Made by a program: the position numbers and the translations under genes
Assembly (NCBI RefSeq): GCF_000018865.1
Contig: NC_010175.1
Coordinates: 2,542,001 to 2,606,000, forward strand
DNA: 64,000 nt
Direction of reading: 5' to 3'
Source: Chloroflexus aurantiacus J-10-fl
GTDB taxonomy: Bacteria > Chloroflexota > Chloroflexia > Chloroflexales > Chloroflexaceae
Notes under the pieces: model-generated
Told to the model about the DNA's origin: nothing
Database searches by the model: none
Seen by the model: the letters and a program-made list of their open reading frames with translations, nothing else
In this document: piece by piece, positions 4,743 through 48,220 of the stretch
How the letters are laid out: every line of letters begins with the position of its first letter
Position numbering within the stretch: position 1 is the first letter of the stretch

Positions 4743-5780
4743 ATGAATATGACAGCAACACCAGACGTTCGTTATCAAATTCAGGCGGAAATGCGTGCTG
4801 CATTTCCGGTGGTCGAAGGGCGGTTGAGCCGGTTTTACGCCATGCAGGAGTACCATCTCGGCTGGCGCAATGAGGATTTGACGCCGGCGGACGCCGATCC
4901 AGGCAAGTTGATCCGGCCACAGCTCGTATTACTGGCCTGTGCGGCTGCCGGTGGTGATCCGCAACAGGCGTTGCCGCTTGCCGCCGGTATTCAGTTATTG
5001 CACGACTTCTCGCTCATCCACGATGACATCGAAGATGACAGTGCTATGCGGCGTGGACGGCGCACACTGTGGCACATCTGGGGGCTGGCCCATGGCATCA
5101 ATGCCGGCGATGCCATGTTTGTCATCGCTCATCTGGCTATTCACCGCCTGAGCGAACGCGGCTTGCCGGCAGAGCGGGTGTTATCGATTCTGCGTCGTTT
5201 CGATGAGATCATCCTCCGCATCTGCGAAGGGCAATACCTTGATCTCAGCTTTGAGGGCGATCTGAGTATTACTCCCGCTGATTACCTGACGATGATCGGT
5301 GGCAAAACTGCCGCTCTCATCGCCGGCGCTGCGGAACTCGGTGCCCGTGCCGCCGGCGCTGACGGAGAGACGGTGGCTGCACTGGCCGATTTTGGGCGAG
5401 CGGTTGGCCTGGCCTTCCAGATCGAAGACGATATTCTCGGTATCTGGGGTGCTCCCGAACAGACCGGTAAACCGTTCGCTGCCGATCTCTACCGCCGTAA
5501 AGTCAGTCTACCGGTTGTGCATGCGTTGACGCATAGCCCTGAACGCGAGCGTCTGGCTGACCTCTACCGCCAGCCCACACTCGACGAGGCTGCTGTGATG
5601 CAGGCGATGGCTATTCTCGATGCTGCCGGATCACGTGCCTTCTGCGCTGCAATGGCAAATGAACATCATCAGGACGCCTTCAAAGCCCTGGATCGCCTGA
5701 ATCCGGCTACCGCGGCGGCAGCCGCAGCCCGTAATCAGTTACGTTCACTGACGCAACGTCTGATTGGGCGGCAGGCGTAG
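4743..5780 (+). CDS. Polyprenyl (probably geranylgeranyl) diphosphate synthase
   Basis: This is a trans-prenyltransferase of the FPP/GGPP synthase family. The first aspartate-rich motif is DDIED (residues 94-98, in LIHDDIEDDSAMRRGRRT) and the second is in AFQIEDDILGIWG (about 225-230). KLIRPQL at about 55-61 supplies the pyrophosphate-binding Lys and Arg. It condenses IPP with allylic diphosphates, and in a phototroph would feed carotenoid and chlorophyll side chains. Chain length cannot be read with certainty from the motif. It is a single gene divergent from a BlaI-type repressor, which may control it. No clear ribosome site is visible; an ATG two codons downstream is equally possible. Confidence 0.88.
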   Translation: MNMTATPDVRYQIQAEMRAAFPVVEGRLSRFYAMQEYHLGWRNEDLTPADADPGKLIRPQLVLLACAAAGGDPQQALPLAAGIQLLHDFSLIHDDIEDDSAMRRGRRTLWHIWGLAHGINAGDAMFVIAHLAIHRLSERGLPAERVLSILRRFDEIILRICEGQYLDLSFEGDLSITPADYLTMIGGKTAALIAGAAELGARAAGADGETVAALADFGRAVGLAFQIEDDILGIWGAPEQTGKPFAADLYRRKVSLPVVHALTHSPERERLADLYRQPTLDEAAVMQAMAILDAAGSRAFCAAMANEHHQDAFKALDRLNPATAAAAAARNQLRSLTQRLIGRQA

Positions 5781-5819
5781 GTGGTCTCTCTGCCGTGTAT
5801 GAGCGTGGTCATGACAGAG

Positions 5820-5853
5820 TCTGTGCCACTCGCTTGATGTCATCGGGCACAGA
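5820..5853 (+). terminator. Likely terminator after the polyprenyl synthase gene
   Basis: TCTGTGCC (5820-5827) pairs with GGCACAGA (5846-5853) and is followed by a T-rich tract (CTAATCTGTTTCTCTT). Confidence 0.45.
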
Positions 5854-5933
5854 ACCTAATCTGTTTCTCTTAAACTAATGACATGCTCGAATTTAGAACT
5901 CTCAACCGTCTTTTCATCCGGCTGCAAATGTGA

Positions 5934-6168
5934 TACACTATAGCCGTTACACAGCGTCACGTCGCCGCGAGAGTCCGTTCGTCCGTTTGAGGCCCGATCG
6001 ACTCCCCCGTCCGCATGACCTCCACGCCTGAGGAACAGCACGCGGCGCTGTGGGCCGCCGTTCGCTCTGAGGCGAAGCGTCCGGTGTTTGTTTCGGAGGC
6101 GTGGTTTGTGGGCATTAGCCCCGTGAGTGACTGCGTTGATCAACCAACGCGGAGGGAGTGGGACCGGA
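5934..6168 (+). promoter_or_regulatory. Promoter and long structured 5' leader of the RRM protein gene
   Basis: An extended -10 (TGATACACT, hexamer 5934-5939) precedes about 220 nt of untranslated leader. CCACGCCT (6022-6029) pairs perfectly with AGGCGTGG (6097-6104). That stem encloses two local hairpins: GCGGC/GCCGC at 6042-6058 and TTCGC/GCGAA at 6061-6076. A last hairpin, GCGTTG/CAACGC (6133-6150), directly abuts the GGAGGGAG ribosome site at 6151. This is compatible with temperature- or protein-controlled translation, as in cold-shock and RNA-binding-protein mRNAs, but I recognise no named riboswitch. Confidence 0.5.
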
Positions 6169-6471
6169 ATGTACGTGAAGCTTTTTGTCGGTAATTTGGC
6201 CTGGAGCGTTGATGATGCAACGCTAGAGGCCTTCTTTCAGGACTACGGCGATGTACGTAGCGCACGGGTGATTAACGATCGCGAGACTGGTCGTTCACGT
6301 GGATTCGGCTTTGTCGAAATGGAAGTCGCTGATGTAGCGACTGTGATCAGCCAGACGAACGGTCGTCCGATCAACGGGCGTGAAATTCGAGTCAATGAAG
6401 CCGAGGACAAGGGTTCCCGCGGCCCTCGTTCCGGCGGTGATCGCGGCGGCTTCGGCGGTCGGCGTTACTAA
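6169..6471 (+). CDS. RRM-domain RNA-binding protein (glycine-rich tail)
   Basis: The protein has 100 residues. The RRM occupies residues 1-80, with RNP2 (LFVGNLAW) and RNP1 (SRGFGFVEM) both intact, followed by a short Gly/Arg tail (GPRSGGDRGGFGGRRY). This is the bacterial/cyanobacterial Rbp type of cytoplasmic single-RRM protein, which binds single-stranded RNA and is often cold-regulated. The start MYVKLFVGNL at 6169 is chosen because GGAGGGAG precedes it and upstream codons fall in the structured leader. It is monocistronic, with a terminator downstream. Confidence 0.92.
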   Translation: MYVKLFVGNLAWSVDDATLEAFFQDYGDVRSARVINDRETGRSRGFGFVEMEVADVATVISQTNGRPINGREIRVNEAEDKGSRGPRSGGDRGGFGGRRY

Positions 6472-6524
6472 CGCTTCCCTTCGAGCCGGTCGCGCCTCAA
6501 CTGGCTCGTGTGCGGGATCCTCTG

Positions 6525-6545
6525 CCCCCTGTCATTGACAGGGGG
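6525..6545 (+). terminator. Terminator of the RRM gene
   Basis: A perfect 9-bp stem, CCCCCTGTC/GACAGGGGG, has a 3-nt loop and lies 53 bp after the stop. Only a weak T-rich tail (TATGTTGTG) follows. Confidence 0.65.
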
Positions 6546-6568
6546 TATGTTGTGTCAGGATATAGATT

Positions 6569-7654
6569 ATGGTTGTCGTTCTTTTCATCGCAGGCATTGT
6601 GCTGCTTGTATTGGGTGCCGATCTGCTGGTGCGCGGGGCAGCCAGTCTGGCTGCCGGCCTGGGTGTCTCTTCGCTGATTATTGGTCTGACCGTTGTTGCC
6701 GTTGGTACGAGTTCCCCGGAAATTGCCGTTAGCCTGCAAGCTGCGTTCGACGGCCAGGGCGCCATTACACTCGGCAACATCGTCGGGAGTAATATTGCCA
6801 ATGTGATGCTCATTCTGGGTGTAGCGGCGATGTTTGGCTCACTGCCGGTTGATCAGCAAATTTTCCGCCGTGACCTGCCAATTATGATCGGCGCCTCTCT
6901 CCTGACCTTTTTGCTCGCCCTTGATCGCACGTTATCGTGGGTTGATGGGATGATTATGCTGCTGGCCTTGACAGGCTATGGATGGATTATGTGGCCGCGA
7001 AATAGCACTCACGAGACACTGCATCATGCTCGAACTACTCAACGGCACTGGCGTGCGATTGTTCTCCAACTGGCAATGGTCGTCGGCGGCCTGGTATTAC
7101 TCATTCTGGGTGCGCGCTGGCTGGTCGATGGTGCAGTTACCTTTGCAAGCTGGTTTGGCGTGAGTGAGTTGATTATCGGGCTGACGATTGTCGCTGTTGG
7201 TACCTCACTCCCAGAGATTGCGACATCGGTGATCGCCGGTTTACGGGGTGAACGTGATATTGCGGTTGGGAATGTGATCGGGAGTAATATTCTCAATCTG
7301 CTCCTTGTTCTGAGTACGACGATGATCCTGTCACCACAACCGATTGCCGTGCCTGAAGCAACGATCTGGCTTGACCTACCGGTGATGCTTGGGGCAGCGA
7401 TCATCTGTTGGCCGATTTTCTTTACCCGCCGGATGGTGTCGCAACGGGAAGGTAGTCTCTTACTGGTCTATTACCTGAGCTATACGCTGTATCTGGTTTT
7501 GCAGGCAACCGGCAGTGCCGGATTGTCGATCTATACTACAGTTGTAGGTCTGGTATTGATTCCTCTCACTGTCGCTCTGTTGGTTGTTCGAGCCTTGCGC
7601 TGGCTGGGGGAAGAGCGTCGCCAGCGTCAGCTTTCAATGAATGCTTCGGAGTAG
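6569..7654 (+). CDS. Calcium/sodium antiporter (CaCA family, YrbG-like)
   Basis: The 361-residue polytopic membrane protein contains the two inverted alpha-repeats that define the CaCA superfamily: GLTVVAVGTSSPE (residues 39-51) and GLTIVAVGTSLPE (about 207-219). Each is followed by GNIVGSN or GNVIGSN. The acidic residues after the proline are the ion ligands. About ten hydrophobic helices are visible. It exchanges Ca2+ (or another cation) for Na+ or H+ at the inner membrane. The next gene begins immediately after the stop (TAGATG), so the two are co-translated. Confidence 0.9.
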   Translation: MVVVLFIAGIVLLVLGADLLVRGAASLAAGLGVSSLIIGLTVVAVGTSSPEIAVSLQAAFDGQGAITLGNIVGSNIANVMLILGVAAMFGSLPVDQQIFRRDLPIMIGASLLTFLLALDRTLSWVDGMIMLLALTGYGWIMWPRNSTHETLHHARTTQRHWRAIVLQLAMVVGGLVLLILGARWLVDGAVTFASWFGVSELIIGLTIVAVGTSLPEIATSVIAGLRGERDIAVGNVIGSNILNLLLVLSTTMILSPQPIAVPEATIWLDLPVMLGAAIICWPIFFTRRMVSQREGSLLLVYYLSYTLYLVLQATGSAGLSIYTTVVGLVLIPLTVALLVVRALRWLGEERRQRQLSMNASE

Positions 7655-47859: not shown

Positions 47860-48220
47860 TGGTGGAGATGGGGGGAGTCGAACCCCCGTCCAGAAAGCTA
47901 GACCGCAGACATCTACAGGTTTAGCCCCTCGTTTCATCTCACCCGCAGTCGCACGAGTGGCAAAGCGACCGTTGGGCCAGCCTGATCTCTTAGCCGATAA
48001 CGCTCAGGCAGGCGTTACCGGAGCACCCGACTGCTGACGCTCGACCCGTAACCATCGGGGGAGCTACGGCGAGCGCGCCGCTATTATTAAGCGGCGAGGG
48101 CCAGGCGAGCCTGGGCCCGAGTGTTGGTGTTGGCAGTTGTTGCCTTGCCCCTTTTACGTGACTGGGCGGCACGACCTGCAGTCTACGGCGTTCACTCCCT
48201 GTCGAAACCAGAGCATCCCC
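47860..48220 (-). ncRNA. ssrA: Transfer-messenger RNA
   Basis: The 361-nt RNA runs from 48220 (5' GGGGATG) to 47860 (3' CATCTCCACCA), forming a tRNA-like acceptor with GGTTCGACTCC as its T arm. The tag frame, read from 48134 on the minus strand, is ANTNTRAQARLALAA followed by two TAA stops (48090-48134). The tag ends in the ALAA-type degradation signal. tmRNA rescues ribosomes stalled on truncated mRNAs. The tag agrees with what I recall for Chloroflexus. Confidence 0.97.

What the first reader, a model, noticed from the sequence alone, without database searches (positions are those of the whole stretch)
5934..6168. Highly structured ~220-nt leader before the RRM protein gene
A perfect 8-bp stem closes over two hairpins, and a 6-bp hairpin abuts the ribosome site. 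Few E. coli-type signals are seen but the paired blocks are exact. RNA-binding protein mRNAs often autoregulate or respond to temperature, so this could be an RNA thermometer, an autoregulatory binding site or an unrecognised conserved RNA motif.
Basis: seen in the sequence. Interest (0 to 1): 0.6.

Follow-up and report, generated by a model that had tools for sequence, protein, structure and literature searches.

The report
Conserved RNA leader of RRM genes
The start of the messenger RNA for a small RNA-binding protein in Chloroflexus folds into a conserved shape found, in the genomes searched, only in front of such genes in this bacterial group, and in some relatives it can cover the start signal of the gene, so it is probably a built-in off-switch.

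Summary
The paired blocks are real. Alone, the leader folds no better than shuffled sequence; comparison of relatives supports the pairs. A core of about 100 nt (5950-6053), just after the likely transcription start, holds a closing stem P1, an internal helix and hairpin P3. All 90 strong model hits in 158 genomes lie 103-226 nt upstream of an RRM gene; 88 of 99 RRM matches in the window's family have one (36 of the 90 had trained the model). None of 73 other RRM loci, nearly all from other phyla, matches. No Rfam 15 family matches. The P3 loop probably pairs with a downstream strand (moderate support; none within the window's own subtype). In 31 of 91 leaders the P2 region carries GCAUCAG, complementary to the start-codon region over up to 15 pairs including G-U, and a sister family shows its own version. 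The window's own leader shows only a weak 5-bp counterpart. Best reading: an undescribed cis-regulatory RNA family that masks translation starts at least in some members. Control by the RRM protein is inferred; a temperature-responsive leader is the main rival.

The parts
5929..5939 (+). extended -10 promoter element TGTGATACACT; CTTTTC at 5910-5915 lies 18 nt upstream as a possible weak -35
   Evidence: TGnTAnRnT lies in the 30 nt before the core in 87 of 91 leaders, against 3.6% of random 30-nt stretches; gap to the core 10 or 11 nt in 80 of 90. The sigma-70 scan found no promoter.
5950..6053 (+). conserved RNA core (P1, P2, P2b, P3) near the 5' end of the rbp mRNA
   Evidence: R1 hit G000:C1:2547950-2548053, E 2.1e-12; this sequence is one of the 37 in the model
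5950..5958 (+). P1, 5' strand CACAGCGUC, pairs with 6044-6052
   Evidence: P1 93.6% paired over 91 distinct rows, double changes at three of six modelled pairs (alignment fitted to the structure); two of six on the MAFFT alignment
6044..6052 (+). P1, 3' strand GGCGCUGUG
5967..5969 (+). P2b, 5' strand GCG (pairs with CGC 6012-6014)
   Evidence: 82.1% paired; its middle pair is U-A in 23 and C-G in 26 rows, but unpaired in 40 of 91
5971..5975 (+). P2, 5' strand GAGUC (pairs with GACUC 6000-6004)
   Evidence: seen by eye; not formally tested
5976..5980 (+). CGUUC in the P2 loop, the weak counterpart of the anti-start element (pairs with GAAUG 6167-6171)
   Evidence: 5 bp, as good in 26% of shuffles; type 1 leaders as a group show no excess
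6019..6033 (+). P3 hairpin CCUC-CACGCCU-GAGG
   Evidence: 96.6% paired; second pair U-A 49, C-G 31
6056..6086 (+). P4 hairpin, loop with AGGCG (6070-6074), complementary to CGCCU (6025-6029) of the P3 loop: candidate kissing pseudoknot
   Evidence: 465 of 516 cells paired over 86 leaders, shuffles 428.6 sd 4.9, but within the window's subtype 109 of 144 against 109.1. P4 itself judged by eye.
6097..6104 (+). alternative partner AGGCGUGG, 8 bp with CCACGCCU (6022-6029)
   Evidence: 7 bp of it reported by the loop scan; the eighth pair read
6131..6152 (+). hairpin that abuts the ribosome site
   Evidence: such a hairpin (weight 10 or more, ending 0-4 nt before the site) in 74 of 91 leaders, against 28.3% at random positions; stem letters differ between genera
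6151..6158 (+). ribosome binding site GGAGGGAG
   Evidence: aligned
6169..6471 (+). rbp gene: 100-aa protein with one RRM domain and a short Gly/Arg-rich tail
   Evidence: Pfam RRM_1 PF00076, E 2.1e-19
6523..6547 (+). terminator-like hairpin after rbp
   Evidence: 1 found, 0.9 expected in shuffles

Best explanation
A cis-acting RNA element near the 5' end of the mRNA of single-RRM proteins in the Chloroflexus family. P1 closes a domain with a variable P2 arm and hairpin P3. Shown here by sequence: conservation, pairing of P1, P2b and P3, fixed place next to the promoter, linkage to RRM genes only. Also shown by sequence, for about a third of leaders and for a sister family but not for the window's own leader: the P2 arm carries an anti-start element that can pair with the start codon and hide it. 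Inferred: the leader sets translation by masking or freeing the start, and the RRM protein (its own or a paralog's) tips the balance, which makes a feedback loop.
For: All 90 hits with E up to 0.0012 in 158 genomes lie 103-226 nt (median 128) upstream of an RRM gene, same strand; 54 of the 90 were not in the model. 59 of 59 hits in 400 genomes of the phylum do too. 88 of 99 RRM matches of the family, paralogs included. Covariation. Anti-start: 31 of 91 leaders have GCAUCAG in the P2 region; its best helix over the start codon weighs 17.8 on average against 9.0 for shuffled regions, p up to 0.05 in 18 of 31; contiguous helices of 10-15 pairs (G-U allowed) in nine leaders. Nine leaders of a sister family, not used to find it, have 6-9 bp (19.3 against 8.8; p up to 0.05 in 6 of 9). 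Letters flanking the start codon change together with the element: 435 of 600 cells paired against 403.8 sd 7.2, 0 of 5000; within the family 340 of 465 against 331.0, 101 of 5000. Predicted start-codon accessibility at 37 C is 0.285 in 91 leaders against 0.447 with shuffled upstream parts, lower in 68.
Against: No binding, expression or probing data. The window's type 1 leaders show no anti-start excess (8.6 against 8.4, 0 of 27 at p up to 0.05), nor do the 33 leaders that are neither type 1 nor carry GCAUCAG (8.2 against 9.2). Linkage to RRM genes also fits any gene-specific signal, such as cold. The loop pseudoknot has no support within type 1, and its excess between types may reflect few events. 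11 of 99 family RRM matches were missed by R1 with strict filters; R2 recovered two and an unfiltered search gave weak matches for some. Six hits at E 0.03-0.07 are not near an RRM gene, about what chance gives.
Confidence: 0.45

Rival explanations
1. Temperature-responsive leader of the cspA or thermometer kind: masking of the start or the fold changes with temperature, without need for the RRM protein.
For: Cyanobacterial RRM genes carry conserved 5' UTR boxes for cold response (passages of PMC9333190). Start-codon accessibility of the window leader rises from 0.02 at 20 C to 0.21 at 55 C and 0.53 at 65 C; over 91 leaders from 0.24 at 20 C to 0.36 at 55 C. The pseudoknot and long leader recall cspA (recalled).
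Against: Shuffled leaders open with temperature too (0.43 to 0.49 over the 91; 0.40 to 0.51 for the window). Ribosome-site accessibility stays flat. These calculations leave out pseudoknots.
Confidence: 0.35
2. Constitutive 5' stabiliser: the structure only protects the mRNA end and keeps the ribosome site clear.
For: Structure close to the 5' end and a hairpin touching the ribosome site.
Against: Conserved loop and linker letters, linkage to one gene family, and an element that covers the start codon in some leaders.
Confidence: 0.12
3. Metabolite riboswitch.
For: A compact domain with conserved unpaired letters and a possible pseudoknot.
Against: All strong hits precede RRM genes, none a metabolic or transport gene.
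Confidence: 0.03
4. Not RNA: a small coding gene (59-aa frame from an ATG at 6015) or plain promoter DNA explains the conservation.
For: The frame is open in the window.
Against: That ATG is absent in 3 of 7 Chloroflexus leaders and in 15 of 15 leaders of other genera in A1, and indels are not in threes; compensatory changes keep pairs.
Confidence: 0.02

Closest known systems
Chlorobi-RRM RNA motif (Rfam RF01697; Weinberg 2010, PMC2864571)
   Same: A candidate structured RNA named for RRM genes, in another phylum; its table row reads 'y y n' (passage seen; that the columns mean RNA, cis-regulatory and switch is recalled).
   Different: Listed for Chlorobi; its model matches neither the window nor 20 related loci. 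Its drawing was not seen.
5' UTR boxes of cyanobacterial rbp genes (Maruyama 1999, as cited in PMC9333190)
   Same: Conserved elements in the leader of single-RRM protein genes, tied to cold response (passages seen).
   Different: Described there as boxes; letters and fold were not compared. The original paper was not read.
E. coli cspA mRNA leader (recalled)
   Same: Long structured leader of an RNA-binding protein gene, with a pseudoknot.
   Different: No Rfam match in the leader; other protein family; temperature response open here.
Autogenous ribosomal protein leaders, such as that of S15 (recalled)
   Same: A leader found before the gene of an RNA-binding protein that may be its regulator, acting on translation start.
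   Different: Not matched in Rfam; binding not tested.

Membership tests
Chlorobi-RRM (RF01697) | match to the Rfam covariance model | tested here: not met
   no match in the window (gathering score), in 5700-6600 at E up to 10, or in 20 related loci at E up to 0.5
Chlorobi-RRM (RF01697) | lies in the leader of an RRM gene | tested here: met
   90 of 90 strong hits
RNA thermometer | ribosome site or start codon paired in the cold and freed on warming | tested here: inconclusive
   ribosome site flat; start codon opens on warming, but so do shuffled controls; pseudoknots left out
cis-regulatory structured RNA | compensatory changes that keep pairs | tested here: met
   for the anti-start element in leaders other than the window's
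autogenous leader of an RNA-binding protein | linked to the gene of the regulator | tested here: met
autogenous leader of an RNA-binding protein | the protein binds the leader and represses | not testable with these tools
   needs binding and reporter assays
cyanobacterial rbp 5' UTR boxes | shared box sequences | not tested
   box sequences not at hand

The most novel reading that the evidence does not exclude
A family of RRM-gene leaders with a built-in anti-start element: an arm of a 5' RNA domain reaches about 150-200 nt downstream and covers the start codon by up to 15 pairs, and RRM proteins of the same cell, binding the domain, open or close it. Paralogs would form a cross-regulating network, with leader types (including the window's, which kept only a weak element) that diverged with their genes. 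The last point was not tested.
Probability: 0.35. Interest if true: 0.75.

Novelty: new variant of a known kind. Interest (0 to 1): 0.58.

Why it matters
To my knowledge (recalled, not searched in full) what bacterial RRM proteins bind and how they are controlled is poorly known. About 95 leaders, each joined to its own RRM gene, give a candidate target site and, through the anti-start element, a concrete mechanism that simple mutants can test.

Tried and rejected
Single-sequence stability as proof: rejected. Pairing of the first 26 nt of the leader with the start region: type 1 -15.6 against -14.8 (sd 3.2) for shuffles, type 2 -14.3 against -12.9 (sd 3.2), so no clear support. Attenuation: no terminator-like site in the leader. 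Small protein: ATG not conserved. RNAalifold on full leaders found P1, P3 and part of P2 but not P4 or the ribosome-site hairpin. Within type 1 the loop pseudoknot is no better than shuffles. In some searches the count of further pair types did not clearly exceed the shuffles.

Rows dropped: A1 left out 8 of the 30 leaders then held (three with an insert, five divergent or without a clear -10). A2 used 37 of 46 placed cores (eight near-duplicates and one divergent leader left out; two more could not be placed). Searches used 91 of the 96 rows of A4 (five duplicate rows). One search used 86: two leaders where P3 was not aligned and three type 1 leaders with the insert were left out as well. One search used 31 of 91 leaders for the ribosome site. 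In one search the ribosome-site pattern was probably misplaced in a few leaders (for example L060, L151), which counts against the hairpin.

The pseudoknot and the anti-start element were first seen by eye or in folds, then tested at fixed columns; GCAUCAG was chosen after seeing it. The sister-family leaders were not used to choose it.

Literature. From titles and the beginnings of abstracts, no listed paper describes this leader; only open-licence papers are covered, and at most 20 papers were listed per search.

Full report
What the window holds. The window lies in a genome of 5,258,541 bases in one contig. A genome of the same genus, G007, has a contig of the same length as one titled Chloroflexus islandicus, and one of the same family (G061) matches a record titled Chloroflexaceae, so I take the genus as Chloroflexus and family f1 as Chloroflexaceae. 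That it is C. aurantiacus J-10-fl is recalled from the genome size. The gene after the leader (6169-6471) encodes a 100-residue protein with one RRM domain (E 2.1e-19). Upstream is a polyprenyl synthetase gene ending at 5780; downstream a Na/Ca exchanger gene starting at 6569.

Is the structure real? Alone it is unremarkable. In 7 Chloroflexus genomes the leader is about as conserved as the gene and the stretch before it is not. Alignments across the family show near-invariant blocks, P1, P3 and a hairpin at the ribosome site. The second RRM gene of the same genome and paralogs elsewhere carry other leader types with other letters and a similar plan. Type 1, the window's, has P1 CAGCGUC/GACGUUG and P3 CCUC-CACGCCU-GAGG; the others, which I call type 2 together, have for example P1 CAACA/UGUUG and P3 CUUC-GUCGCUC-GAAG.

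Covariation. On the MAFFT alignment of 37 cores P1, P2b and P3 are 91.3% paired (shuffles 85.7, sd 0.6), 44 cells are changed on both sides (16.3, sd 3.8), covariation is 0.291 (0.191; slid versions at most 0.121); further pair types do not exceed shuffles (12 against 16.4). On 91 distinct rows aligned to the model, hence leaning towards it: 91.8% against 85.8, 97 cells against 30.2, eight pairs with double changes. P2b is the weakest helix.

Distribution. R1 on 158 genomes of the class gave 96 hits at E up to 0.1. The 90 with E up to 0.0012 all lie 103-226 nt upstream of an RRM match on the same strand; the 6 others (0.029-0.068) do not, with no RRM match in about 1 kb around. 36 of the 90 are leaders the model was built from, 54 are not. 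88 of 99 RRM matches of family f1 and 2 of 28 of the other families of the order have the element. R2 on 400 genomes drawn from the phylum hit 23, of which 22 in family f1, at 59 places, all upstream of RRM matches. Both searches used Infernal's stricter filters, which lose weak matches. The other 73 did not match at E up to 1; by title nearly all belong to other phyla, one is a Dehalococcoidia and a few are unnamed bacteria.

Position. 87 of 91 leaders have TGnTAnRnT in the 30 nt before the core (3.6% of random stretches), and the gap is 10 or 11 nt in 80 of 90. With a start about 7 nt after the box (rule of thumb), P1 begins around the fifth or sixth nucleotide. No start site was measured.

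Loop pseudoknot. The P3 loop is complementary to a strand shortly after P1: UCGCUC with GAGCGA in most type 2, CGCCU with AGGCG in the window. At fixed columns over 86 leaders 465 of 516 cells pair against 428.6 (sd 4.9; 0 of 2000), 53 leaders at all six positions. Type 2 alone: 356 of 372 against 353.4 (36 of 2000), with double changes at three pairs, each in one leader. Type 1 alone: 109 of 144 against 109.1. The excess across types may stand for few events. Support is moderate for the family and absent for the window's subtype; the window also has a second possible partner at 6097-6104.

Ribosome-site hairpin. Present by my measure in 74 of 91 leaders against 28.3% at random positions. None of the 7 second-paralog leaders of Chloroflexus in that table (L075, L076, L119, L129, L130, L137, L143) reaches the threshold.

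Anti-start element. While checking my temperature calculations I found that the start codon is predicted to be less accessible than in controls with shuffled upstream sequence: 0.285 against 0.447 at 37 C over 91 leaders, lower in 68 (type 2 0.209 against 0.395, 50 of 64; type 1 0.464 against 0.572, 18 of 27). In 41 of 91 leaders the U of the start codon pairs, with probability 0.5 or more, with the region between P1 and P3. In 31 of 91 leaders that region holds GCAUCAG, complementary to the start region: ACUGGCAUCAGAG with CUCUGAUGCUGGU (13 pairs, L113), GACCGGCAUCAG with CUGAUGCUGGUC (12, L132), CACGCAUCAG with CUGAUGCGUG (10, L048), and 15 pairs with G-U in L072. Mean weight is 17.8 against 9.0 for shuffled regions; 18 of 31 reach p 0.05 and 10 of 31 p 0.01. 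The swap control inside this group gives little difference (17.5), since most share the letters. In nine leaders of one genus of another family (f4), not used to find it, elements such as GACACGCAU face AUGCGUGUC (6-9 pairs; 19.3 against 8.8). Across both groups the letters around start codon and element change together: 435 of 600 cells paired, shuffles 403.8 (sd 7.2), 0 of 5000; family f1 alone 340 of 465 against 331.0, 101 of 5000; f4 genus alone not significant (944 of 5000). Some leaders with GCAUCAG pair poorly beyond the start codon, for example L158 and L121. The window's leader has only CGUUC with GAAUG (5 pairs, as good in 26% of shuffles), five other Chloroflexus type 1 leaders have 6-7 pairs (p 0.10-0.19), and type 1 as a group shows nothing. 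The second RRM gene of this genome has ACCGGCAU with AUGUUGGU, 8 pairs (p 0.04).

How it probably works. Shown by sequence: a conserved, covarying RNA near the start of RRM mRNAs, linked in these searches to RRM genes only, and in a third of leaders an arm that can hide the start codon. Inferred: translational control by masking, and feedback by the RRM protein as the signal. For the window's own gene the masking step is not supported by sequence. The main rival is temperature: cyanobacterial RRM genes have conserved 5' UTR boxes for cold response (passages of PMC9333190), and the start codon of the window leader opens on warming in the calculation (0.02 at 20 C, 0.21 at 55 C, 0.53 at 65 C), though shuffled controls open too.

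Known or new. No Rfam 15 family matches. Chlorobi-RRM (RF01697) is nearest in kind (table passage of PMC2864571). The literature searches listed under Tried and rejected showed no description of this leader, within an open-licence library and from listings. I call it a new family within a known kind, the structured leaders of RNA-binding protein genes.

Noticed in passing
L161, L162, L163, L165, L166, L172-L175 (RRM leaders of one genus of family f4): A different conserved leader of about 250 nt with an extended -10 box, a ribosome-site hairpin, a possible CGUAU/AUACG closing stem, and an element complementary to the start codon region.
   Followed up: partly
G000:C1:76560-77309 (L076), outside the window: Second RRM gene of the same genome; its leader has ACCGGCAU facing AUGUUGGU at the start codon, and AUGUUG there also resembles the P1 3' strand ACGUUG, so it could compete for the P1 5' strand.
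   Followed up: partly
window 6097-6104: AGGCGUGG is complementary over 8 bases to CCACGCCU 6022-6029, a second possible partner of the P3 loop and so a possible two-state switch.
   Followed up: partly
L044, L046, L050: Type 1 leaders of one genus carry an insert of about 80 nt between the core and the ribosome-site hairpin.
   Followed up: no
window 6127-6168: An in-frame GTG upstream of the RRM start would add 14 residues; the ribosome site and start at 6169 aligned across relatives speak against it.
   Followed up: partly
window 47860-48220, minus strand: tmRNA gene (RF00023, 181.7 bits).
   Followed up: no
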